NCBI GenBank assembly: GCA_022701275.1
Contig: CP031740.1
Span: 6,399,001 to 6,463,000, forward strand
DNA length: 64,000 nucleotides
Source: Microcoleus vaginatus PCC 9802
Lineage (GTDB): Bacteria > Cyanobacteriota > Cyanobacteriia > Cyanobacteriales > Microcoleaceae
Direction of reading: 5' to 3'
Part shown: positions 3 through 43,056 of the stretch, piece by piece
Layout of the letters: each line of letters opens with the position of its first letter
Position numbering within the stretch: the first letter of the stretch is position 1
Translations under genes and position numbers: made by a program
Notes under the pieces: generated by a model
What the model saw: the letters and a program-made list of their open reading frames with translations, nothing else
What the model was told of the DNA's origin: nothing
Database searches by the model: none

Positions 3-223
3 ATAATAGAAGTGAGAAAACAAGAAAATATCTCAATAAGAAAACTAGCAGAACGTTTTAAGGTAGCCAAGAGCTTTGTTCAAAAATTACTAAAAAGATC
101 TCAAGAGACACGAGATATAAGTCCTATTGCTAAAGTCGGAAGTCAACCACACAATTAAATAGCGAACAATTAGTGACTTTAGTGGAAATAATAGAAGACA
201 ATAATGATGCAAATTTAAAATAA
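3..223 (+). pseudogene. IS630-type transposase, N-terminal remnant
   Basis: The frame from base 3 to 158 encodes a helix-turn-helix segment containing IRKLAERFKVAKSFVQKLLK, which resembles the DNA-binding N-terminus of IS630-family transposases common in cyanobacteria. It stops, and the expected continuation (LNSEQLVTLVEIIE) resumes in another frame at about 155-223, so one frameshift has broken it. No DDE catalytic part follows. The 5' end runs off the window. This is a dead fragment of a mobile element next to the NOS gene. The family call is from recalled similarity only. Confidence 0.6.
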
Positions 224-896: not shown

Positions 897-3800
897 TTGG
901 ATGTAATAAAACAGACATTTAAAAAATACACAGTCTACAGGACACAAGCGAAAGTGACTAACTCTACATTCAATAATTTACCAGCGGACGCTGCAACTAT
1001 TCTGGTTTTGACATCCGATATTCACTATTTACCGGCAAAGCAATTTGTTAGTTTGGCGGTAACTTCAGAGCGCTTTCAGGTTTGTGGATTAAAACGCTTT
1101 GGGGCGATCGCTGCTGCAACCAATTTAGTTAGTAGCGAGTGGTTGAATCTGGGCTTAAATTCTCAAAATATTTTACCCGAAGAATTTGATAGTGCAGAAG
1201 CGGCAGTAATTTTTATCATGCCGACAGACTTATCTGAGGTGGTAGCCCTCACTCGTTCCTTTATAGATATAGCTAAAAAAAAGGGAATTCGGCGTTTAGC
1301 TTGGGTTGCACCTGCTTGTCTGAACGGAAAAGTAGCCGATCGCTTGGCTACAGCAGAAAGTCTGGTGCGCGACTTAAATATAGAAACTCTCATCTTGCGT
1401 CATGCGCCTTTATTTTCCCATCTGTTGATGCAGAAAAAGGAATTGAGGTTTCGCCGTACTTTGTCGTTACCGCTTGGGACTAGCACTATACCTTGGTTAG
1501 ATCCTTCAGCGCTCGCGGAAGGGTTATCGAAATGGCTGCATGGAGAGATAAACAACCAACCTCCAGAAATCTTGACAGGTTCCAATTTGCTTAGTGGTGC
1601 TGATATTGCGCTCGAACTATCGGCAATGCTGCGGCAAACTATGTCGGCTCAACAATTTGCTCGGTTGCGATTTGAAGCGATCGACATTGATAAAAGCGGG
1701 CAAATTGAGGCTCAAGAGTTGTTTCCCTACCTATTAGATTTGGGATATAGCAACGATGAATCTGAGTCTATTTTAGAGCAGGCTGACAAAGACAAGAACG
1801 GCACGATTGATTTTGACGAATTTGTCTATGGTTTAGAAGCTCATTTAAACCGCATTCTAGCCGATGTGCCGACAGAAGTTCGCTATTTTGATCTGCCAAC
1901 CTCCGCAGCGCTGCACGATGCAATGGCAGGGGGAATGAATGAAAAAGCAGCCCAATCTCAACTAGATTGGCTGGTGGGATTAAGTAAATCTGGATTAACC
2001 GAGCATGGAGTTGCAACAGCCCAATGGTTAGGGCGAAAAACTCTTGGTTTGAGCGATTGGATTGCTCAACATATTCTGGAACTTATTAACGTTTATATTC
2101 TGCCTGGACGCGGTATTTTAACTATTAGTGAGGGGTTTTTAGCAGGACGACCAGCACTAATTACACGGCTGCTACAAGCAAATGACCGGATGTTGATTGG
2201 AGAGCGATCGCTAGATGGCGAAGTGCTGGAGTGGTATTGGGCTGATGAAGATACAAATAATTTAGAAGAAATTCGCTATACTTCCGAAAGCGGTGGCGAA
2301 CGAGTCCTGAGATTAAAGGATGGCAAGATTGCCAGTTTATCGGCACGCGGACGCTGGATGGGGCGGCGATTAGCAATTCAGTTATTTTTTGAATATCGAG
2401 TCCTTCCCCGTTGGCAAGTAGCATTATTCCGCGAGTTAGGAGAACTGCAAATTGAGGAAGCAACCACATCGGGAGCCGATAGCGATATCGTTTGCAACTG
2501 TACGAAAACCACCTGTGGCAAACTCCGAGAACTGATAGATATAGGTGTTGATTCCCTAGAGGGAATTGTGGAACAAACACAGGTGACAATGATCTGCGGT
2601 AGCTGCCAACCTTTAGTCGAAGAAATGCTAGGTTCGGCCAATCTGGCTGTTGCTGAACTCGTTGCTAAAGAAGATTTGGGGCGAGGGATGATGCGCTTCC
2701 ACTTCCGCCCAGTGTACGAACAAGTCTTTGCTTCCAAACCAGGACAACATATCCTGATTCAAGGACGGGTGAATGGTTCTTGGGTAACTCGCGCTTACAC
2801 TTTGAGTTCGCCAGCCGACCAAACCGAGCAATACGAAATCACGGTTAAACGAGAACAATTGGGTTTATTTTCTGGTTGGTTGTGCGATCGGGCAGATAAA
2901 GATGCGTTGTTACGCATTTCTCAACCAAGAGGTGAGTTTTTCTTAGAAGATGAAACTCCTGTAGTGTTTTTTGCTGGAGGGATTGGCATAACTCCAGCGA
3001 TCGCCATGATGCGAACTTTAGCTAACCGAGGAGATACCCGCAAATTTCACCTCGATTTCTCTGCTCCCCATGCCGAAGATTTAGTCTTTCACCAAGAACT
3101 AGAGCAACTGGTAAGCACTCATCCTAATTTAAGCTTTACAGTTCGGGCAACTCGTTCAACAGGCAGACTCACCCCTGAAATTGTGCAAAGTTTGTATCCC
3201 TACACGGAAGCAACCGTTGCTTTTATGTGCGGGCCCCAACCTTTTATGGATGCGGTGCGCGGCTATTTACAGACCGCAGATTGGCAGGATCATGCCATTC
3301 GCCAAGAATTATTCTCCTCCAAGCTAAATGAGGACGGTAACGCTCAAACTCTCACCTCGCAACGTCCGGCGGTGCAACTAGCAGGAGGAATTACCCCCAT
3401 CGAACAGACCAGCATTTACCTCCAACCGATTAACTCCGTCGCCAAAGAAGCAGAAGTTTTCCTCAAACAATGCTATCTCGAACAAGGTTTACCAGAAGTT
3501 TTCCTTCCCCGTTGGCAAGAAGTCAAGGAATCAATTGAGCGCACAGGCACTTACGAACATACCTATGATGAACTAGCTTACGGCACAAAGCTGTCATGGC
3601 GTAACAGTAACCGATGTCTGGGACGCAATTTTTGGCGTAGTTTGCAATTGCGGGATATGCGGCATCTGCAAACAGAGGAGGAGATTTTTGAAACATTAGT
3701 TGAACACATCAACTTTGCTACTAATAACGGCAATTTGCGATCGACAATTACGATATTGAATCCAAATTTGCAGATACGAATTTGGAGCAGTTTAATGCTG

Positions 3801-4541
3801 CGTTATGCAGGCTACCGTCAACCCGATGGCAGCATTCTCGGCGATCCTGCTAATGTGGAGTTAACAGATCAGGCAATCAAGTTAGGGTGGTCGCAAGAGT
3901 CTAAAACCCGCTTTGATGTATTGCCTTTTATTATCCAAATAGGGGAAGGGGAACCCAAATGGTTTGAAATTCCGCCAGAAGTTATTTTAGAAGTTCCCAT
4001 TTCCCACCCTCGCGATCAGTGGTTTGCAGAATTGGGGCTGAAATGGTTTGCGCTCCCTGCTGTTTCTAACATGATGTTGGATATGGGAGGTATTCAATAC
4101 CCCACACCATTTAACGGCTTTTACATGGGCGCGGAAATTGGCGGGCGGAATTTTAGCGACACTTATCGCTACAATCTGCTGCCAATTGTTGCGGAAAAGA
4201 TGGGTTTAGATTGCAGTGACAATATGACACTGTGGAAGGATGCAGCGTTAGTAGAAATCAATGTAGCTGTGCTGCATTCTTACAAGCTGCATGGGGTAAG
4301 GATGCTGGATCATCATACCTTGAGCAATTCCTTTATGCAATTTGTGGATGAAGAGCAACAATGCGATCGCCACGTTTATGGAGATTGGCGTTGGCTGATC
4401 CCGCCGCTATCGGGTTCAACCGTACCAGTTTACCCCTTAGAGTTTGAAAATCGTCTGCTTAAACCGAACTATTTTTATCTACCCGATCCTTGGGAGGAGA
4501 AATCAGAGTCTGGTAAATGTCCATTCCACCATCAGTCCTAG
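897..4541 (+). CDS. nos: Nitric oxide synthase, reductase-first fusion with in-cis EF-hands
   Basis: Predicted self-sufficient NOS making NO and citrulline from L-arginine with NAD(P)H and O2. Domains: NmrA-like Rossmann part (about 1-245 and 325-395) interrupted by two canonical EF-hands (loops 263-274 and 297-308); an unassigned stretch (395-525); a BFD-type [2Fe-2S] domain (C533, C535, C567, C570; extra C540); ferredoxin-reductase FAD/NAD modules (RAYTLS at 632, GGIGITPA, CGPQPFM); and a NOS oxygenase domain (about 845-1205). The oxygenase has WRNSNRCLGR with heme-ligand C907, substrate Glu1080 in MGAEIG, and DWRW at 1163-1166 in the pterin region. There is no flavodoxin/FMN module. Reductase-before-oxygenase with Fe2S2 recalls the Sorangium cellulosum enzyme rather than animal NOS. 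The start is TTG 897 (in-frame stop at 888); GTG 954 is an alternative. A bestrophin-like gene follows. Confidence 0.93.
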   Translation: MDVIKQTFKKYTVYRTQAKVTNSTFNNLPADAATILVLTSDIHYLPAKQFVSLAVTSERFQVCGLKRFGAIAAATNLVSSEWLNLGLNSQNILPEEFDSAEAAVIFIMPTDLSEVVALTRSFIDIAKKKGIRRLAWVAPACLNGKVADRLATAESLVRDLNIETLILRHAPLFSHLLMQKKELRFRRTLSLPLGTSTIPWLDPSALAEGLSKWLHGEINNQPPEILTGSNLLSGADIALELSAMLRQTMSAQQFARLRFEAIDIDKSGQIEAQELFPYLLDLGYSNDESESILEQADKDKNGTIDFDEFVYGLEAHLNRILADVPTEVRYFDLPTSAALHDAMAGGMNEKAAQSQLDWLVGLSKSGLTEHGVATAQWLGRKTLGLSDWIAQHILELINVYILPGRGILTISEGFLAGRPALITRLLQANDRMLIGERSLDGEVLEWYWADEDTNNLEEIRYTSESGGERVLRLKDGKIASLSARGRWMGRRLAIQLFFEYRVLPRWQVALFRELGELQIEEATTSGADSDIVCNCTKTTCGKLRELIDIGVDSLEGIVEQTQVTMICGSCQPLVEEMLGSANLAVAELVAKEDLGRGMMRFHFRPVYEQVFASKPGQHILIQGRVNGSWVTRAYTLSSPADQTEQYEITVKREQLGLFSGWLCDRADKDALLRISQPRGEFFLEDETPVVFFAGGIGITPAIAMMRTLANRGDTRKFHLDFSAPHAEDLVFHQELEQLVSTHPNLSFTVRATRSTGRLTPEIVQSLYPYTEATVAFMCGPQPFMDAVRGYLQTADWQDHAIRQELFSSKLNEDGNAQTLTSQRPAVQLAGGITPIEQTSIYLQPINSVAKEAEVFLKQCYLEQGLPEVFLPRWQEVKESIERTGTYEHTYDELAYGTKLSWRNSNRCLGRNFWRSLQLRDMRHLQTEEEIFETLVEHINFATNNGNLRSTITILNPNLQIRIWSSLMLRYAGYRQPDGSILGDPANVELTDQAIKLGWSQESKTRFDVLPFIIQIGEGEPKWFEIPPEVILEVPISHPRDQWFAELGLKWFALPAVSNMMLDMGGIQYPTPFNGFYMGAEIGGRNFSDTYRYNLLPIVAEKMGLDCSDNMTLWKDAALVEINVAVLHSYKLHGVRMLDHHTLSNSFMQFVDEEQQCDRHVYGDWRWLIPPLSGSTVPVYPLEFENRLLKPNYFYLPDPWEEKSESGKCPFHHQS

Positions 4542-4567: not shown

Positions 4568-5494
4568 ATGAATTATGACCGGAATAATTGGTTTAAGCTA
4601 GCTCTTGATTTAAAAAGTTCCGTTATTCGGGATATCACAACCCAGGTGCTTTTGAGCATGGTAATGGCTTCGATCATTACCATCGTTTACAAAAATGGCT
4701 ATTTAGGTTTTAGCCAACCAATCTTAGCTGGATTAATTCCAGGAATTATATTAGGGTTGCTATTAGTTTTTCGTACTAATACAGCCTATGAAAGATTTTG
4801 GGAAGGCTGGCAAATTGCTGGTATGACTATATTTACGGGTCGCAATATTTCGAGACCAATGTGGCTAACAATCCCTACTAATACTTTAGCACAGAGTCAA
4901 GAAAAAGCTGCTTTTGTGCGCTTAATTCCCGCTTTTTTTATGGCAATGAAACAGCATTTAAGACACGCGGGAGTTGACCAGTCCTTAAAATCAGTGCTTT
5001 CTCCTGAACAATGTTTAGAGTTGCAATATGTCACTAATATGCCATTAAAAGTGACGCAATGGATTGGGGGATATTTAACTAAACAATATACCCAGCAGCA
5101 TATTGATAGTATCCAATTTGCTGCCATCAATCGCTTGTTGGATCAATTAGTTGAATGTCTGTCACGCTGCGAACGCATTTTAGCGGCACCGATGCCAAAA
5201 GCTTATTCGATTCACTTACGGCATCTGTTACTTTTGTATTGTTTGGCACTGCCTTTTCAGATGGTGAAAGATTTGCAATGGTGCACAATTCCCGTTGTTG
5301 GGGTAGTGGCTTTTGCGTTGTTTGGCATTGAGGCAATCGGTTTAGAAATTGAAAATCCCTTTGGATATGATGCTAATGATATACCCCTCGATCGACTTTG
5401 CCAAAAGTTGCACAACGATATCGAAGAATTAATTGCTGCTGGAACAAAGGAAGACAGCATTGAAACATCACCAGGGCAAACGCATATTAAATGA
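4568..5494 (+). CDS. Bestrophin-like (RFP-TM/UPF0187) anion channel
   Basis: 308 residues from ATG 4568, which has GAGG 8 bases upstream. The frame also opens at ATG 4517 inside the NOS gene, but that start lacks a comparable ribosome site. Hydrophobic segments lie near residues 25-70 and again around 220-260, and the bestrophin-family signature RTNTAYERFWEGW follows the second helix. Bacterial bestrophins form pentameric ion channels in the membrane; whether this one conducts anions or cations cannot be read from sequence. It begins 26 bp after the NOS stop on the same strand, so the two are probably co-transcribed, which hints at a link between NO or Ca2+ signalling and ion flux (inference). 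Confidence 0.85.
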   Translation: MNYDRNNWFKLALDLKSSVIRDITTQVLLSMVMASIITIVYKNGYLGFSQPILAGLIPGIILGLLLVFRTNTAYERFWEGWQIAGMTIFTGRNISRPMWLTIPTNTLAQSQEKAAFVRLIPAFFMAMKQHLRHAGVDQSLKSVLSPEQCLELQYVTNMPLKVTQWIGGYLTKQYTQQHIDSIQFAAINRLLDQLVECLSRCERILAAPMPKAYSIHLRHLLLLYCLALPFQMVKDLQWCTIPVVGVVAFALFGIEAIGLEIENPFGYDANDIPLDRLCQKLHNDIEELIAAGTKEDSIETSPGQTHIK

Positions 5495-16632: not shown

Positions 16633-19194
16633 ATGTCTCCCATCTCCGAATCCCCATTTTCCCCCGCACAAATTGCCGGTGAAAGACTCACACCTGAAGA
16701 ATATGAAGAAATCGTTCAGCGTCTAGGTCGCCATCCTAATAAAGCTGAATTGGGAATGTTCGGCGTTATGTGGAGCGAACACTGCTGTTACAAAAATTCG
16801 CGGCCACTATTAAAACAGTTTCCCACAGAGGGCGATCGAATTCTAGTCGGGCCCGGAGAAAATGCCGGCGTCGTAGACTTGGGAGAAGGCTTGCAACTCG
16901 CCTTCAAAATTGAATCGCACAACCACCCGTCTGCAGTCGAACCTTTCCAAGGTGCAGCAACCGGTGTCGGGGGGATTCTCCGCGATATCTTCACAATGGG
17001 TGCACGCCCGATCGCACTTTTAAATTCCCTGCGTTTTGGCAACTTAGACGATGCTAAAACTCAGAGATTGTTCAAAGGCGTAGTATCGGGAATTTCTCAT
17101 TATGGAAATTGCATCGGAGTACCCACAGTTGGCGGCGAAGTTTACTTCGATCCTGCTTATTCCGGCAACCCGCTAGTTAACGTCATGGCCTTGGGTTTAA
17201 TGGAAACTCAAGAAATCGTCAAATCCGGCGCTTCTGGCATCGGAAATCCCGTGCTTTACGTCGGTTCAACTACCGGGCGAGATGGCATGGGAGGAGCAAG
17301 TTTTGCCAGTGCCGAATTGACGGACAAATCAATGGACGATCGCCCCGCAGTCCAAGTAGGAGATCCATTTTTAGAAAAATCCTTAATTGAAGCTTGTTTA
17401 GAAGCATTCAAAACCGGTGCAGTCGTCGCCGCCCAAGATATGGGTGCGGCAGGAATCACCTGTTCTACATCAGAAATGGCAGCCAAAGGTGGCGTCGGCA
17501 TTGAGTTTGATTTAGACAAAGTTCCCGTTCGAGAAAGCGGCATGATTCCCTACGAATACCTGCTTTCAGAATCCCAAGAACGGATGTTGTTTGTTGCCCA
17601 AAAAGGACGGGAACAGGAATTAATCGATATTTTCCACCGCTGGGAATTGCACGCCGTAGTAGCGGGGACAGTCATCGAAGAGCCGATCGTGCGAATTCTA
17701 TTTAAAGGCGAAATCGCGGCGGAAATTACCGCGACTGCTTTGGCAGATAACACGCCCATTTATCACCGAGAACTGTTGACCGAGCCGCCCGAATATGCTA
17801 AAAAAGCATGGGAATGGACGGCGGATTCCCTGCCACAATCCACAGTTACAGGTATCGAAATTAACGGCAATTTCCAAACTTGGAGTCAGATTTTGCTGAC
17901 ACTTTTAGATACTCCCACCATCGCTTCTAAACGCTGGGTTTATCGCCAATACGACCATCAAGTGCAAAACAATACTGTTGTTTTACCCGGAGGCGCTGAT
18001 GCTGCGGTTGTCAGATTGCGTCCGCTAGAACCTTGCCAATCTTCCCTTGGTAACGGGCTAGAAGTACACCCCCTTGCTAAGGGGGATCTACAGAGAGGAA
18101 ATGCTGTTTCTCTAGCTTCCGAAAGCAAACAAGAAGAAGAAGTAATTCCTCTATTTACAAAGGCACAAGGTAGGGAAACTCCAAAAGTTTCTCCCCCCCT
18201 TAGCAAGAAGGAAGCGCCCCTGGGAATTATTCCTGGAGTTGCTGCAACGGTTGATTGCAATTCTCGTTATGTTTATCTCGATCCTTATGAAGGTGCAAAA
18301 GCAGTCGTAGCGGAAGCAGCGAGAAATTTAAGTTGTGTGGGTGCTGAACCTCTCGCAGTTACTGATAATTTGAATTTTGGCAGTCCTGAAAAGCCTATCG
18401 GATATTGGCAGTTAGCGTCAGCTTGTCGCGGGATTGCTGATGCTTGTCGCGAGTTGGGAACGCCTGTTACTGGCGGCAATGTTTCTCTTTACAATGAAAC
18501 TGTTGATGCTGAGGGAAATCCTCAACCAATTTATCCGACTCCGGTAATCGGAATGGTGGGGTTAATCCCCGATTTGACCAAGATTTCTGGCCAAGCTTGG
18601 CTAAAGAAAGGTGATTTAATTTATGTGCTGGGAATGGGGGAATCATCCCAAAATCCAGAACTTTCATCGGAAAGCTCAAAAATCGAAACTTCTCCTACTT
18701 TGGGAGGTTCGGAATATTTAGCGGCAATTCACGGGATTGTAGCTGGGAAACCGCCAAGGATAGATTTTGAGTTGGAAAGAAAAGTGCAATCGGTTTGCCG
18801 CGAGGGAATTCGGCAAGGTTGGGTAGGTTCTGCCCATGATTGTGCGGAAGGTGGAATTGCGATCGCCCTCGCGGAATGCTGTATCTCTGCTAAAATGGGT
18901 GCGGAAATTCATCTCAGTTTCAATTCGGCCAATGTCGGCCGCTGGGATGAAATTTTGTTTGGTGAAATGGGCAACTGCATTGTAGTTTCAGTGGCACCGA
19001 AAAATCAAGAAATTTGGGAGTCTTACCTGCAAGAACATTTGACCAAAATGTGGCAGAAGATTGGTTTAGTTTGCTGTGCTGAATCACCTTTGCGGGTTGT
19101 GAGTGCTGACAATCAAGTGTTAATTGAGGTGGCGATGGGTGAGATGGGCGATCGATTCTATAATGCGATCGAGCGTCGGATTGCATCTGTCTGA
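16633..19194 (+). CDS. purL: Phosphoribosylformylglycinamidine synthase subunit PurL (with insertion)
   Basis: Converts FGAR to FGAM with ATP and glutamine-derived ammonia in purine synthesis. The small-type PurL used with PurS and PurQ. Both AIRS-like halves are complete, with [63 protein letters not shown] and [12 protein letters not shown]. At 853 residues it is about 70-100 longer than usual. The excess lies mainly at about residues 467-533, between RLRPLE and GVAATVDCN. This stretch carries a 13-bp inverted repeat (18073-18085 and 18195-18207) that matches dispersed intergenic repeats, so it seems to be a repeat element inserted in frame. A second smaller loop ([20 protein letters not shown]) may also be lineage-specific. 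purF lies downstream beyond a kinase gene. Confidence 0.95.
18031..18231 (+). repeat. Dispersed inverted-repeat element inserted inside purL
   Basis: CTTGCTAAGGGGG at 18073-18085 and its exact reverse complement at 18195-18207 bound about 110 bp of low-complexity sequence rich in GAA/GAAG. The open reading frame passes through. The same C/G-run palindrome family is present in the intergenic DNA after purL (19208-19285). Confidence 0.7.
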
Positions 19195-37011: not shown

Positions 37012-40000
37012 TCATCTAAACTGTTGAACAAATTCTACTAATTTGTCTTCTTCAAAGTTTTTGGTTAATTCAAGTAACTGATTGGCAAAAGGTGCATAAC
37101 GCATATCTATTGCCTTCAGGTTGCTGGCTCGCTGCTCAATACTGAGGAGTTCACCTTTCATGGCTAAATCGAACAGGACTGCAACTTCTTCCGAAGGGGG
37201 AGCAATCATTTGTTGGTCTTGGATTTGGGAAGAGGGATCGGTAAATATACCTTCTGAACTGAAAGTTGTTCGCTCCTCATAAACCCATTGTAAACCTAAA
37301 TGGTTGCCCAAGCATTCTAATAACTTTTCTGCCCGAATTGGTTTGAGGAGAAAAGCGTTGCAACCATCCTGGAAAATGCTGTGGGGATCACCGGATAAAA
37401 TGCTAGCAGAAGTTCCGATCGCGATGACATCTTTCAATGGAGGGATTTTTCTGATCCGCCTCACCGCTTCAAAGCCGTCCATGACTGGCATTACTAAGTC
37501 AATTATAATACAGTCGGGTTGAAATAACAGCGCTTTATTCAAGCAGTCTTGACCGTCCGTTGCCTCCATTAATTCAAACCCGATAGGACCTAAAAGATTA
37601 ACTAAGACAGAGCGATTTTGCCAGCGATCGTCAACAACTAAAATTTTCCGCCGATCGCCTGAGAAACCCCTGATAATTTTTTCAGTTTCTTTTTGATACC
37701 CTTCCCAGTTTTCGGTAATAGGCAACTCTAACTCAAACGAGAAAATACTGCCTTTACCTAAAGAGCTTTGTACTTTCAGTTCGCCGCCCATCATCTCCAC
37801 TAATTGGCGACTAATTGGCAGCCCTAATCCTGTCCCCTCTATCTGGCTAACTGAACCGCTGGCTTGCTCGAAGGGCAAAAATATTTTTGAGAGTTCCTCC
37901 GGCGCGATGCCAATGCCTGTATCTTCTACTTGGAAAATAAATTTCGCTGTTAGGGATTGGGGATTGGCGATTGGTGATGACAAAGATTGCTGAGTCTCCA
38001 GCCTGTCTACTTTAAAACTAACGCCTCCTTTTTCGGTGAATTTTATGGCATTACCGAGTAAGTTGATGAGAATTTGCCGCAACCTTTTTTCATCGGCTTG
38101 GACGCAAGTGGGAAGTGGAGTTAGCGGTTCGTAAATCAAAGAGATTCCCTTCTGTTGGGCGCGAATCTGGCAGATTTCAGTAATGCCTTGGAGAAAGTCT
38201 GACAGGTGAAACTCGGTGAGATAGAGTTCCATTTTTCCGGCTTCGATTTTGGACAGGTCTAGAACGTCATTGATCAGAGTTAGGAGGTGTTCGCCACACT
38301 GATGAATGATGTTAATACCAGAATTTTGCTGACTGGTTAAACCTGTGTCTCGTTTGAGGATTTGGGTATAACCTAAAATGCCGTTGAGCGGTGTGCGAAG
38401 TTCGTGGCTCATGTTGGCGAGAAATTGGCTCTTGGCGCGGTTTGCGGCTTCGGCCGCTTGCTCGGCTCGCTGTCGCTCTTGAATTTCCACTTCTAGGCTC
38501 GTATTTTTGGCTTTTAATTCCTCGGTTCGCTCTTCTACTTTGACTTCTAAAGTGTGATAGAGGTTGGCATTTTCTAAGGCGATCGCAGCTTGTCCCGATA
38601 GCATCCGCAACACTTCTACCCGCTTCGGCGTGAAAGCGCCATCAATCACGTTGTTTTCTAGGTACAGGATGGCACTTAACTTACCTTGAGATAGGATAGG
38701 CGCACACAAAATTGATTTTGGTTTGTGTTGGGCAATGTAGGGGTCGGCGTTAAAAATTTCCTCGCGGCTGGAATCATTTAAAACGACATCTTTCTGAGTT
38801 CTGGTGACGTAATTAAGTACCGAGATAGGCACTTGCCCATAAGTTGATACTGGTAAAGATTCCAGCACTCGGACTTGATCTTTAGTCCCCGCCGCTTCTA
38901 TAACAAGTTGACCCTCTTTTGAGAGAATAAGCGATCCAGTTTCAGCGCCGGCGTTTTCTATCAAAATTTTCATTAACTTGGTGAGCAAGTTAGGTAGAAC
39001 AATTTCGCTAGAAATGGCAATAGATGCTTTCATTACAGTTGCCAAGTCTAGCAACTCTGTTTGAGCGCCTGTAATGGTCAAAGGAGCCATTGTCATCGTA
39101 GGATCGAAAGGGGTTTCGCTGACCGCAGGCGATCGCGCTATTAATTGCGGGTAATTTTCTTCTAGATGTTTAACTTTAGCTAAAGCTCCCCAGCGCATAT
39201 AGGCATAATAAGCATCGGTCATGTAGGTGCGGGCAATCTTTTCTTTACCCCAGGAAAAATAGAATTTAGCAGCGAGTTCGTGAGCTAGTGCTTCTTCGTT
39301 GATGTACTCGTTTTCTTTGGCAAGAGCGATCGCTTTGTCGTACATTTCGATCGCTTCTACTGTTTCGCCTAAAACATGATGTTTTTCGGCCTCTACTAAA
39401 TAGAATTTATGTAGATGATTCATTGGGGCATAATGGGCCCAGTTTTGCAATTTTTCTTGATTAGCTTGTACTCGGTTAAGAATGTCCTGTTGGTCGGAAT
39501 GCGAAGTTTCAGGATACACAGCTAGCCGTACTAGAGAATCGTAGAAATAGAAGATAACAACAGTTAGCTGCCCTGTAGATGATCCGAAAGAACTTTCTAC
39601 TTGAGGGATATTTTTTAACGCTTCCGCGTAATTGTCAAACACATAGCAAAGCGCAAGTTTTTGCAAGTATAAGTAATGAATTGCCAGTTGGTTGTTGGTT
39701 TGCTGATATAGCGGCAGCATTTTCTCTTCGTCGTATACTTCCCCCTTTAACTGGCATAGATTTTCGCTTCTTCCCACCATGTTTAAGACGGCTTGCCAAC
39801 AGATTTTTGTATTATTAAGCGCTGTTTCTTGGCTGATTTTATGAATTGCATCTGTGTAAGTTGCTATCTCTTGTTCGAGTTGCATTAGTTGCTTCCCAAC
39901 AAAAAACGAGTAATGACTCCAAACCATGACGGCATAGCCAGCATATTCTAAATCTCCAGTTTCCAGCCCAGTAGAGAAAGCCGACAGGAAAGGTTCTAAG

Positions 40001-43000
40001 GTATTCCGGACGTGTTCTTTCCAATGTTGAACGGCAGCATACACTAAGTGGCAAGTCTTGACTTCGATTTCTTTGGCATTTAACTTTGACACTAGACGTA
40101 AAGCTAATTGGCCCAACTCATAGCCCCGCTCAATATCTCCTACCGCCCCGCAAAGAAGAAGACTATATACCGCATATGCAAAGGGAGACACAGAAGCATT
40201 GCCATATTGAACGGATAAATCGACCTGTTTGCACACTGTTAAAGGCACGAGTGCGGGCATCCCAGAATAGCAAGCAGAAAATATACTTGACAAAATCCTG
40301 ATCGCTGCTAATTGATAAGGATCGGTCATTTCAGGGAGATCGATTAAGTCCTCAATTCGGGTTCCGCTCAAAATTGCCGCAGTTTCCCCCAGCGCCTGGC
40401 CAATATCAGATGGGTTTGGCGAGTCGGGAAACTCTACCTCCAACTGCTTTAAGACTTGCAGCCCCGTATTCAATGCTTCGAGCAGCTTGTTCTGCGCCAT
40501 ATAAGCTTGAATCTGGACTTCGTACACTTTTACTATGTCCAATAGCGTTTTGGCGCAGTTTTGTACTATCTCAACGAATCTCTGCATTCGGCCAAAATCA
40601 CCACTCAAATATGCTGACTCTGCTGCTTCCTCATGCAGCCTTAATGTCAGTTCATATTGATTGTCCCAACTATCTACCGCTAGCAGAGATAAACCCACTT
40701 GCAAATATTTGACGGCGGAATCGTGGGCTGTAGCAGCTTTCGCTTTCTGACCTGCAATCAGATTCAATTGGGCTAGTTCATATTTTTGGGATTCAGTGGT
40801 AAGTAAGTCAGTACCATAATTGAGTTGGTTAACTAAAGCGAAAATATTTTCTTTTCGGTCTTCGGGCGTTGTACTTTGCAGCAGCAGTTGACCGATTTTT
40901 AAGTGGGTTTCTTTTTTCTGCTCATCTGGAATCAAAGAATAGGCAGCTTGCTGCACTCGGTCATGTAAAAACTTGTAGTCAACCTTCACATCAGTTAAGG
41001 TAAAACCGCCCGATTCTTCCTGACTAAATACGAGGGGAATTTTGTATTCATTGCTCAAAGGTAAAATCAACCCAGCTTGAAGTGCTGCCCACAATTGCGC
41101 CGCCGTGACTAAGGATGATTCCTGATTGACAATCGCCAAAACTTCTAAGTTAAAAGTGTTGCCAATACAAGCAGCAAATTTTAATACTTTTTGGGTATCT
41201 TCTGGCAATTTGCGTATGTTTCTAGCAATCAGTTCTACAACATTGTAATCGGTGATGCCGATCGCTTGAATTTGCTCGATATTCCATTGCCAGACACCAG
41301 AATATAAATCATAAGTCAACAAATCTTCTTGATAGAGAGTTTTGAGGAGTTGACTTAAGAAGAAAGGATTGCCCTGCGTTTTATTAAAAAGTAGAGACGC
41401 GAAATTTCGCGTCTTTACAGACAGGGATTCCGAACCGCCCGATTCATTTAAAGTATCCGCAATTAATTCTTCGACATGAACTAGGTGTAATGGTTGAAGG
41501 ACAATATTATTCACCGTCGCACCACTTTGGCGAATCTTGTCAAGTGTTTGAATCGTGGGATGAGTTGGAGAAACTTCGTTATCTCGATATGCCCCAATCA
41601 GCAACAAATACTTGCTATCAGAATCAGTTATTAGCAATTCTATTAATTTCAACGATGCCGAATCCGCCCACTGCAAGTCATCGAGGAAGATAACTAAGGG
41701 ATGGTCAATAGTCGTAAATACGCCAATGAATTGTTTAAAGACGCGACTGAAACGGTTTTGAGCTTCAGTTGCCCCTAGTTCTGCTACGGGGGGCTGTTTG
41801 CCAATAATCAGTTCAACTTCAGGAATCACCTCTGCGATCACTTGCCCGTTAACGCCTAAAGCACCTAATAGTTTCTCTTTCCAAATTTGAATTTCTGCTT
41901 CGCCTTCGGTTAGAAGTTGCTGAGTTAAGGATTGGAATGCTTGAATCAGGGAAGCATAAGGAATATTGCGCTTGAACTGGTCAAATTTCCCCGCAATAAA
42001 ATAGCCTCGTTGCCGCACAATGGGTTTGTGAACTTCATTGACCAAAACTGTTTTGCCTATCCCGGAATAACCGGAAACCAGCATTAATTCGCTGGTGCCA
42101 CTGGCAACGCGATCGAAAGTTTCTAGAATTTTTTCAATTTCTTGGTCGCGACCGTAGAGCTTTTGCGGTATATTTAATTGCCCTGCTTTATCCGCACTTC
42201 CAACAACAAAGTTGGAAATATCTCCGCTAGCCTGTAGTTGGATAAAACAAGTTTCTAAGTCAAATTTTAGTCCTTCAGTGCTTTGGTAGCGGTCTTCAGC
42301 ATTTTTAGCTAATAACTTCATCGCAATCGCTGAAATTTGTGGTGGGATTTCAGGATTTAGCTGCTGAGGGGGAATGGGAGTTTTGGCAATATGGCTGTGT
42401 ACCAATTCCAGCGGGTCTGTGGAATTAAAGGGCAACTCGCCTGTGAGCATTTCATAGAAGGTAACGCCTAGTGAATAAAAATCAGTGCGGTAGTCAATTG
42501 ACCGATTCATCCGGCCAGTTTGTTCGGGCGACATATAGGCGAGTGTGCCTTCGAGCAAATCGGGATGGCTGAGCGTCGAATTTTCTCGCTCCAGGCGCGA
42601 AGCGATGCTAAAATCAATAATTTTAACTTTTTCAGTGGCTGGGTTGATGATAATATTTTGTGGCTTTACATCTTTATGAATAATGTTATGTTTATGGAGT
42701 TCTGCTAAGGCAGAGACAAGCTGGAGAGCCAAAGAAAGAAATTGAATGATTGAGACTTTTTTACCCTTCATCCAATCGTTGAGAGACTCGGAGCCGGAAT
42801 CTTCTAATATCAGTGCTAAACCGTTTTTATAGCTTTCTAAACTAATGGCTTTGATAATCGATTCTACGTTCAAGCTGTGCAGGATTTGATATTCGTGTCG
42901 CAAGCGGGTGATGTCCGAAAGAGTGGGATACTCAGCCTTTAGCCTTTTGACGATCACGCTGGAAAAGTCTGCATCCTTCCGAGCGCGATCGACTGAAGTT

Positions 43001-43056
43001 CTTATCCCGCTGTGGAGGGTTTCAACGAATTGATAGCCAGCTAAGTTGATAGTCAT
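37012..43056 (-). CDS. Ser/Thr kinase-AAA-GAF-histidine kinase-REC hybrid
   Basis: 2014 residues. Order: Ser/Thr kinase (about 1-265; catalytic Asp129 in [10 protein letters not shown]), AAA-type ATPase (about 290-600; Walker [14 protein letters not shown] near 333), a long helical repeat region (600-1340), GAF (about 1365-1520), histidine kinase (His1551 in [12 protein letters not shown]; ATPase GTGLGLPI), receiver (phosphoacceptor near 1853 in [12 protein letters not shown]) and a short helical tail. This multi-domain type is a cyanobacterial speciality and usually senses an unknown cytosolic signal. A 28-bp palindrome is read through in frame at about residues 547-556, between the ATPase core and [15 protein letters not shown]. 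It heads an operon with the REC-kinase at 35503. Confidence 0.94.
41391..41418. repeat. 28-bp palindrome (GTAGAGACGCGAAA...) inside the kinase gene
   Basis: A near-perfect 28-bp palindrome with one mismatched pair, GTAGAGACGCGAAA followed by its complement. This is a dispersed palindrome known from cyanobacterial intergenic DNA. Here it lies in the reading frame and encodes [11 protein letters not shown] just before [11 protein letters not shown]. Confidence 0.8.

What the first reader, a model, noticed from the sequence alone, without database searches (positions are those of the whole stretch)
897..4541. Self-sufficient nitric oxide synthase with inverted domain order
Seen: NmrA-like Rossmann, EF-hands, [2Fe-2S] and FAD/NAD(P)H domains precede a complete NOS oxygenase with heme-ligand Cys907 (WRNSNRCLGR), Glu1080 and DWRW. 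Known: animal NOS and the Synechococcus PCC 7335 enzyme place the oxygenase before an FMN-containing reductase; a reductase-first NOS with an Fe2S2 cluster was described from Sorangium cellulosum. Inferred: electrons flow NAD(P)H to FAD to [2Fe-2S] to heme in one chain, without FMN or calmodulin.
Basis: partly seen in the sequence, partly recalled or inferred. Interest (0 to 1): 0.95.

Follow-up and report, generated by a model that had tools for sequence, protein, structure and literature searches.

The report
Reductase-first, calcium-motif nitric oxide synthase
A cyanobacterium carries an intact gene for a nitric oxide-making enzyme whose electron-supply half comes first and which bears its own calcium-binding motifs; this layout is already in print for related bacteria, but its electron-supply cassette turns up elsewhere with a different sensor or a different heme partner.

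Summary
One intact frame (897-4541; the real start is probably GTG 954, 1,195 aa) encodes a degenerate NmrA-like domain, a canonical EF-hand pair, an unnamed linker domain, a BFD-type [2Fe-2S] domain, FAD and NAD domains, and a complete NOS oxygenase (Pfam E 1.4e-155) with Cys907, Glu1080 and Trp1166. No FMN domain is found. The route NAD(P)H to FAD to [2Fe-2S] to heme rests on what is written of Sorangium NOS; calcium gating by the EF-hands is inference.

The design is not new: a 2013 paper names inverted NOS in Microcoleus and Crinalium, and a 2020 figure legend gives Microcoleus and Sorangium NOS reversed order and EF-hands, Sorangium also BFD.

Seen here and not met in the papers I saw: (i) versions with a cyclic-nucleotide-binding pair in place of NmrA/EF-hand, in one Planctomycetota genome and one deep relative of Cyanobacteria; (ii) the same cassette ending in a membrane domain with paired histidines; (iii) NirB-like linker and BFD; (iv) transfer between cyanobacterial families. 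Only (i) was searched for by its own terms. The enzyme looks like one output of a swappable sensor-reductase-heme system.

The parts
   Evidence: start by comparison with ortholog L158
993..1646 (+). degenerate NmrA-like Rossmann domain (residues about 33-250, numbered from TTG 897 here and below); no glycine-rich GxxGxxG motif seen
   Evidence: NCBIfam TIGR03649 E 1.3e-7 at residues 100-249; the missing motif judged by eye, motif recalled
1683..1718 (+). EF-hand loop 1, DIDKSGQIEAQE (residues 263-274)
   Evidence: Pfam EF-hand pair; both loops found in 9 of 9 proteins tested, window included
1785..1820 (+). EF-hand loop 2, DKDKNGTIDFDE (residues 297-308)
2052..2486 (+). linker domain with PGRG motif (residues about 386-530), no Pfam match; its second half resembles the part of NirB just before BFD
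   Evidence: no Pfam hit for the window piece at E up to 10; the NirB model spans this region plus BFD in 4 of 7 family members scanned, but not in the window protein itself
2487..2630 (+). BFD-like [2Fe-2S] domain; cysteines 533, 535, 567, 570
   Evidence: Pfam PF04324; 19 of 19 loci given to one search had a frame with the C-x-C ... C-x2-C pattern (frames were picked by that pattern)
2655..2939 (+). FAD-binding domain
   Evidence: PF00970, residues 587-681
2970..3260 (+). NAD(P)-binding domain; with the FAD domain closest to flavohemoprotein Hmp and NADH oxidoreductase models, all below their cut-offs
   Evidence: PF00175; NF009805 E 1.9e-34
3432..4496 (+). NOS oxygenase domain
   Evidence: PF02898 E 1.4e-155; best PDB match 2flq E 5.1e-123
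3615..3617 (+). Cys907, heme-ligand position
   Evidence: alignment to solved NOS; role recalled
4134..4136 (+). Glu1080, arginine-binding position
   Evidence: alignment to solved NOS; role recalled
4392..4394 (+). Trp1166, pterin-stacking position
   Evidence: alignment to solved NOS; role recalled
4568..5494 (+). bestrophin-family channel gene, 26 nt after the NOS stop (start 4568 chosen by comparison with L033; the longest frame starts at 4517); co-transcription is a guess
   Evidence: Pfam Bestrophin_2 E 6.7e-84; also directly downstream of NOS in L033 and L158

Best explanation
It is an intact, horizontally acquired gene for a Sorangium-type, reductase-first nitric oxide synthase. NAD(P)H reduces the FAD of an Hmp/BenC-like reductase. 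Electrons then pass one at a time through the BFD [2Fe-2S] cluster to the heme-thiolate of the C-terminal oxygenase, which turns arginine into citrulline and NO, probably as a dimer. The N-terminal NmrA/EF-hand unit is most likely the control element, with Ca2+ binding changing electron delivery, so that calcium control is built into the chain instead of lent by calmodulin. Shown here: domain order, conserved ligand positions, intact frame, family spread, cassette reuse, and a similarity pattern that points to transfer. Taken from what papers say of Sorangium NOS: self-sufficiency and the electron route. Inferred: calcium gating and dimer geometry.
For: Domain hits above cut-off. Active-site positions align with solved NOS. 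The BFD cysteine pattern is found in 19 of 19 cassette loci (frames picked by that pattern). Both EF loops are canonical in 9 of 9 proteins tested, although the NmrA region around them is the least conserved part (invariant fraction EF 0.34, NmrA 0.16, 7 members). The same cassette, with another sensor, ends elsewhere in a membrane-like domain with two pairs of invariant histidines 14 residues apart, so it seems to feed a C-terminal heme protein there too. [quoted passage not shown]
Against: I found no biochemistry for this protein or a cyanobacterial ortholog. The EF-bearing members are all related, and a kept binding site does not prove gating. Both AlphaFold models were unusable (mean pLDDT 33 and 42), so no contact between the EF unit and the reductase could be seen. 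In the arginine-site motif Trp is replaced by Phe in 11 of 11 rows of this clade; in the pterin motif the first Trp is lost in 3 of the 11 (Cylindrospermum, G174, G927) and G927 also lacks the second; effects on activity are unknown.
Confidence: 0.75

Rival explanations
1. Same enzyme, but the EF-hands are structural or serve targeting; activity is set by substrate, pterin and NAD(P)H supply and is calcium-independent.
For: Relatives with a cNMP pair and no EF-hand exist, and other cyanobacterial NOS forms have no EF loop, so the core does not need calcium.
Against: The calcium-ligating positions stay canonical in 9 of 9 proteins tested, window included; a purely structural hand would be freer to lose ligands.
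Confidence: 0.35
2. The [2Fe-2S] cluster is not on the main route: FAD reduces the heme directly, and the cluster senses NO or redox state or takes electrons from an outside ferredoxin.
For: In sequence the BFD lies on the far (N-terminal) side of the FAD domain from the oxygenase; flavohemoprotein, whose reductase is the best match, passes electrons from FAD to heme with no cluster (recalled).
Against: The cysteine pattern is kept across NOS and membrane-domain versions; a review says the 2Fe-2S subdomain of Sorangium NOS is involved in transfer from NADPH to heme (PMC9311577 passage).
Confidence: 0.15
3. The product in the cell is not free NO for signalling but nitrate, a nitrated metabolite, or superoxide from an uncoupled enzyme.
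For: Synechococcus NOS moves arginine nitrogen to nitrate (PMC6104048, title, abstract and passages); two relatives (G040, G024) have broken copies, so the function can be lost.
Against: No globin domain is found here; the position that gates NO release (PAV) is Val as in the animal NOS aligned (role recalled), which predicts fast NO release; ten downstream neighbours scanned show no natural-product cluster, though only about 900 nt upstream lie in the window.
Confidence: 0.15

Closest known systems
Sorangium cellulosum NOS (scNOS, Agapie et al. 2009; that paper not held, not read)
   Same: Reductase before oxygenase; 2Fe-2S, FAD and NAD domains; EF-hand motifs and BFD (PMC3701330 part 1 of 2 read; PMC7400543 legend; PMC9311577 passage)
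   Different: The host is a myxobacterium.
Inverted NOS of Microcoleus vaginatus (ZP_08493682) and Crinalium epipsammum (YP_007142230), PMC3701330
   Same: Cyanobacterial, inverted order; EF-hands noted for Microcoleus in PMC7400543
   Different: Named there without activity.
Synechococcus PCC 7335 NOS (SyNOS type) and animal NOS
   Same: Homologous oxygenase domain
   Different: Oxygenase first, FMN-containing diflavin reductase, globin in SyNOS; SyNOS-type rows form a separate group in the oxygenase tree (100/100)
NOX5/DUOX-type calcium-regulated oxidases (recalled)
   Same: Works like: EF-hands in the same chain as an FAD/NAD reductase feeding heme
   Different: Not homologous as a whole; heme is membrane-bound and the product is superoxide or peroxide

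Membership tests
Nitric oxide synthase | NOS oxygenase domain with heme-thiolate Cys, arginine Glu and pterin Trp | tested here: met
   PF02898 E 1.4e-155; positions aligned with solved NOS
Nitric oxide synthase | Arginine-dependent NO and citrulline formation | not testable with these tools
   needs purified protein
Sorangium-type reductase-first NOS | Reductase N-terminal to oxygenase in one open frame | tested here: met
Sorangium-type reductase-first NOS | 2Fe-2S plus FAD plus NAD domains, no FMN | tested here: met
   domains above cut-off, no flavodoxin hit at E up to 1
Sorangium-type reductase-first NOS | Sequence clade with scNOS itself | not tested
Sorangium-type reductase-first NOS | Catalytic self-sufficiency with NAD(P)H | not testable with these tools
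   reported for scNOS (title of the 2009 paper as cited in PMC9500659)
Animal/SyNOS diflavin NOS | FMN (flavodoxin) domain C-terminal to oxygenase | tested here: not met
Calcium-regulated enzyme | Canonical EF-hand loops | tested here: met
Calcium-regulated enzyme | Activity changes with Ca2+ | not testable with these tools
   needs an assay
NirB nitrite reductase | Match to the NirB models over their curated cut-off, siroheme domains included | tested here: not met
   only BFD, or linker plus BFD, matches NirB models, far below cut-off

The most novel reading that the evidence does not exclude
Bacteria own a swappable cassette, [second-messenger sensor]-[NirB-like linker+BFD]-[FAD]-[NAD]-[heme output], in which the sensor is a cNMP-binding pair or an NmrA/EF-hand unit and the output is NOS or a membrane cytochrome b. 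The window enzyme is the Ca2+-gated NOS form, which arose by replacing a cNMP sensor, so NOS control by calcium evolved in bacteria without calmodulin; cNMP-gated NOS enzymes exist beside it.
Probability: 0.4. Interest if true: 0.75.

Novelty: new member of a known kind. Interest (0 to 1): 0.45.

Why it matters
Animal NOS borrows calcium sensing from calmodulin. A NOS with its own EF-hands, and relatives with cyclic-nucleotide domains in the same place, would give a direct way to test how second messengers gate electron delivery to NOS heme, and whether calcium-NO coupling arose more than once. It also offers a single-gene NO source without FMN or calmodulin. For the window alone the interest is moderate, since the architecture was already noted in print.

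Tried and rejected

Name for the linker domain: Pfam at E up to 10 on four copies gave nothing useful. The NirB idea came from NCBIfam: of 7 proteins scanned, the NirB model spans linker and BFD in 4 (L058, L130, L127, L163) and BFD only in 3 (window, L160, L124).

Chance or pseudogene: rejected; the frame is intact and full-length orthologs exist.

Standalone NmrA/EF-hand protein as donor of the sensor: in the 59 genomes (the window's own included) no match at E 0.001 outside NOS covered the NmrA part; outside NOS that end met EF-hand matches only.

Prevalence in other phyla: in the phyla of G427 (an Ensifer genome) and G426 (a Rhodococcus genome), 2 of 229 and 5 of 222 genomes had any match at E 1e-40, none of them spanning reductase and oxygenase. 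Myxococcota could not be reached.
Full report
What is there. The frame at 897-4541 is open and intact. Pfam finds, in order, an EF-hand pair, Fer2_BFD, FAD_binding_6, NAD_binding_1 and NO_synthase, all above cut-off; a weak NmrA-type match precedes them. The best solved relative is 2flq (E 5.1e-123; a bacterial NOS, recalled), and the catalytic positions line up. An ortholog 92% identical places its ATG at the window's GTG 954, so the protein is probably 1,195 aa. A bestrophin gene follows after 26 nt.

Relatives. In a sample of 388 genomes of the window's order, 57 have a match to the cassette-plus-oxygenase profile at E 1e-30, and in 9 the match spans reductase and oxygenase: G000, G174, G733, G742, G761, G803, G871, G883 (two copies) and G927. 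Six of the nine read end to end in one frame (G000, G174, G733, G742, G803, one copy of G883); G761, G871 and the second G883 copy are split over frames and G927 runs off its contig. Of 28 other genomes of the window's genus only G024 has a copy, and there the middle of the gene is missing. G040 in another family has only a broken oxygenase part.

EF-hands. Two canonical loops occur in 9 of 9 proteins whose N-terminus the script could test: window, L032, L033, L158, L159, L160, L161, L163, L164. G927 has no N-terminus on its contig and G883b's N-terminal frame was not tested. The EF stretch is more conserved than the NmrA part before it (0.34 against 0.16 invariant, 7 members).

Sensor swap. 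G072 (same phylum, different class) has an intact 1,088-aa protein with two cNMP-binding stretches, then linker, BFD, FAD, NAD and NOS; it is the only one of 18 genomes of its class with a NOS match. In a sample of 294 Planctomycetota genomes, 10 matched at E 1e-40. One, G599, has the same core in a 987-aa frame; its cNMP pair lies in an overlapping upstream frame, so a frameshift or assembly error is possible, and Pfam did not list its NAD domain at E 0.01. Two have oxygenase matches only (G698; G493, a 118-aa fragment). Seven (G471, G511, G529, G605, G618, G630, G652) carry the cassette without NOS. Six of the seven have two cNMP stretches by Pfam; G605's frame shows none. All seven end in a 157-160 aa hydrophobic domain with five invariant histidines, two pairs 14 columns apart. 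Pfam gives only a very weak ferric-reductase hit for the one tested (E 0.86), so cytochrome b-like is my reading. One genome of the G427 phylum (G1107) has a similar protein cut by its contig end (its tail judged by eye).

Trees. The oxygenases of the 11 rows of the window's type group together (91/95, 89% of 200 bootstrap trees) apart from SyNOS types (100/100); the two cNMP-type rows pair at 84/82. G927 is placed in that type by its reductase and oxygenase only. In the reductase tree the NOS cassettes separate from the membrane-domain ones (100/100); if that branch is the root, G072 leaves first and G599 then joins the NmrA/EF clade (91/94). The two trees disagree on whether G072 and G599 are sisters (6% of bootstrap trees have them so), neither fork is starred, and the tool warns of long branches. 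That the cNMP sensor is the older one rests on its presence in both the outgroup and these two, not on a firm tree.

Origin of the cassette. The FAD/NAD part is closest to flavohemoprotein Hmp and other NADH-reductase models. The NirB model covers linker plus BFD in L058 (E 1.2e-13), L163 (2.2e-9), L127 (1.2e-8) and L130 (1.2e-6), but only BFD in the window protein, L160 and L124.

Transfer. Window NOS is 92% identical to that of G733, a genome of another family, while RelA/SpoT is 71%. Same-genus G024 is 98% in RelA/SpoT but only 76-79% (N-terminal part) to 86% (oxygenase part) in NOS. The PurL comparison is less sharp (87% and 71% in two pieces with G733; G024 gave no PurL match). Bestrophin follows NOS in window, L033 and L158 but was not found in the fetched flanks, of varying length, of L032, L159, L160, L161, L163 or L164.

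Active-site variants. All 11 rows of the clade have Phe in the NGFYMG-type motif where 15 of the other 17 rows have Trp (G698 also has Phe, Rhizobium Ile), and Val in the PAV motif, which SyNOS-type rows have as Ile. Their effect is recalled from work on other NOS, not tested.

Prior art. PMC3701330 (first of two parts of the text read) reports inverted NOS in Microcoleus vaginatus and Crinalium epipsammum. PMC7400543 (passages) says in a figure legend that Microcoleus and Sorangium NOS have reverse order and two EF-hand motifs, Sorangium also BFD. PMC6104048 (passages) gives cyanobacterial NOS two clusters, oxygenase-only and globin types. PMC9500659, PMC9311577, PMC12922734 and PMC8728061 were seen as passages. 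In the listings of searches (titles and abstract starts; 20 of 25 shown, 12 of 58) I saw no paper on a NOS with cNMP domains or on activity of a cyanobacterial reductase-first NOS; the library is open-access only. The membrane-domain cassette and the NirB likeness were not searched for by name.

Verdict. Real, intact and correctly read, but a new member of a known kind. The broader cassette is the part that would surprise a specialist.

Noticed in passing
L058:5358-8624; L124:6839-10050: Reductase-first NOS with two cNMP-binding domains in place of NmrA/EF-hand, in a deep relative of Cyanobacteria and (split over two frames) a Planctomycetota genome.
   Followed up: partly
L126, L127, L128, L129, L130, L131, L132; L173: The same BFD-FAD-NAD cassette (with a cNMP pair in six of the seven Planctomycetota ones) ends in a small hydrophobic domain with paired invariant histidines, perhaps a cytochrome b-type reductase.
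   Followed up: partly
L067, L068, L069 (genomes G008, G014, G017): SyNOS-type enzymes in the window's genus carry EF-hand loops ahead of the NOS domain (3 of 3 read: two loops by pattern in one, one in two, where Pfam shows a pair for G008); none in 11 of 11 rows from other genera. Calcium motifs may have joined NOS twice.
   Followed up: partly
L060, L059; L048, L050: Decayed NOS genes: same-genus G024 lacks the reductase middle, G040 has a broken oxygenase, and G123 and G324 show only fragments; NOS seems to be lost at times in cyanobacteria.
   Followed up: partly
window 3-158, upstream of the NOS gene: A short helix-turn-helix-like remnant, perhaps of an IS element (label recalled, no tool result).
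   Followed up: no
window 16633-19194: PurL here is 853 aa; residues about 471-533 are not covered by the matches in the 5 of 6 genomes that have a PurL match (their frames are 775-805 aa), so it may carry an insert.
   Followed up: no
L103:4891-8254: Conjugative plasmid of Nostoc sp. C052 has an oxygenase-only NOS between two SDR oxidoreductase genes in what looks like a biosynthetic operon.
   Followed up: no
window 37012-43056: 2,014-aa protein joining a Ser/Thr kinase-like start to a hybrid histidine kinase end.
   Followed up: no
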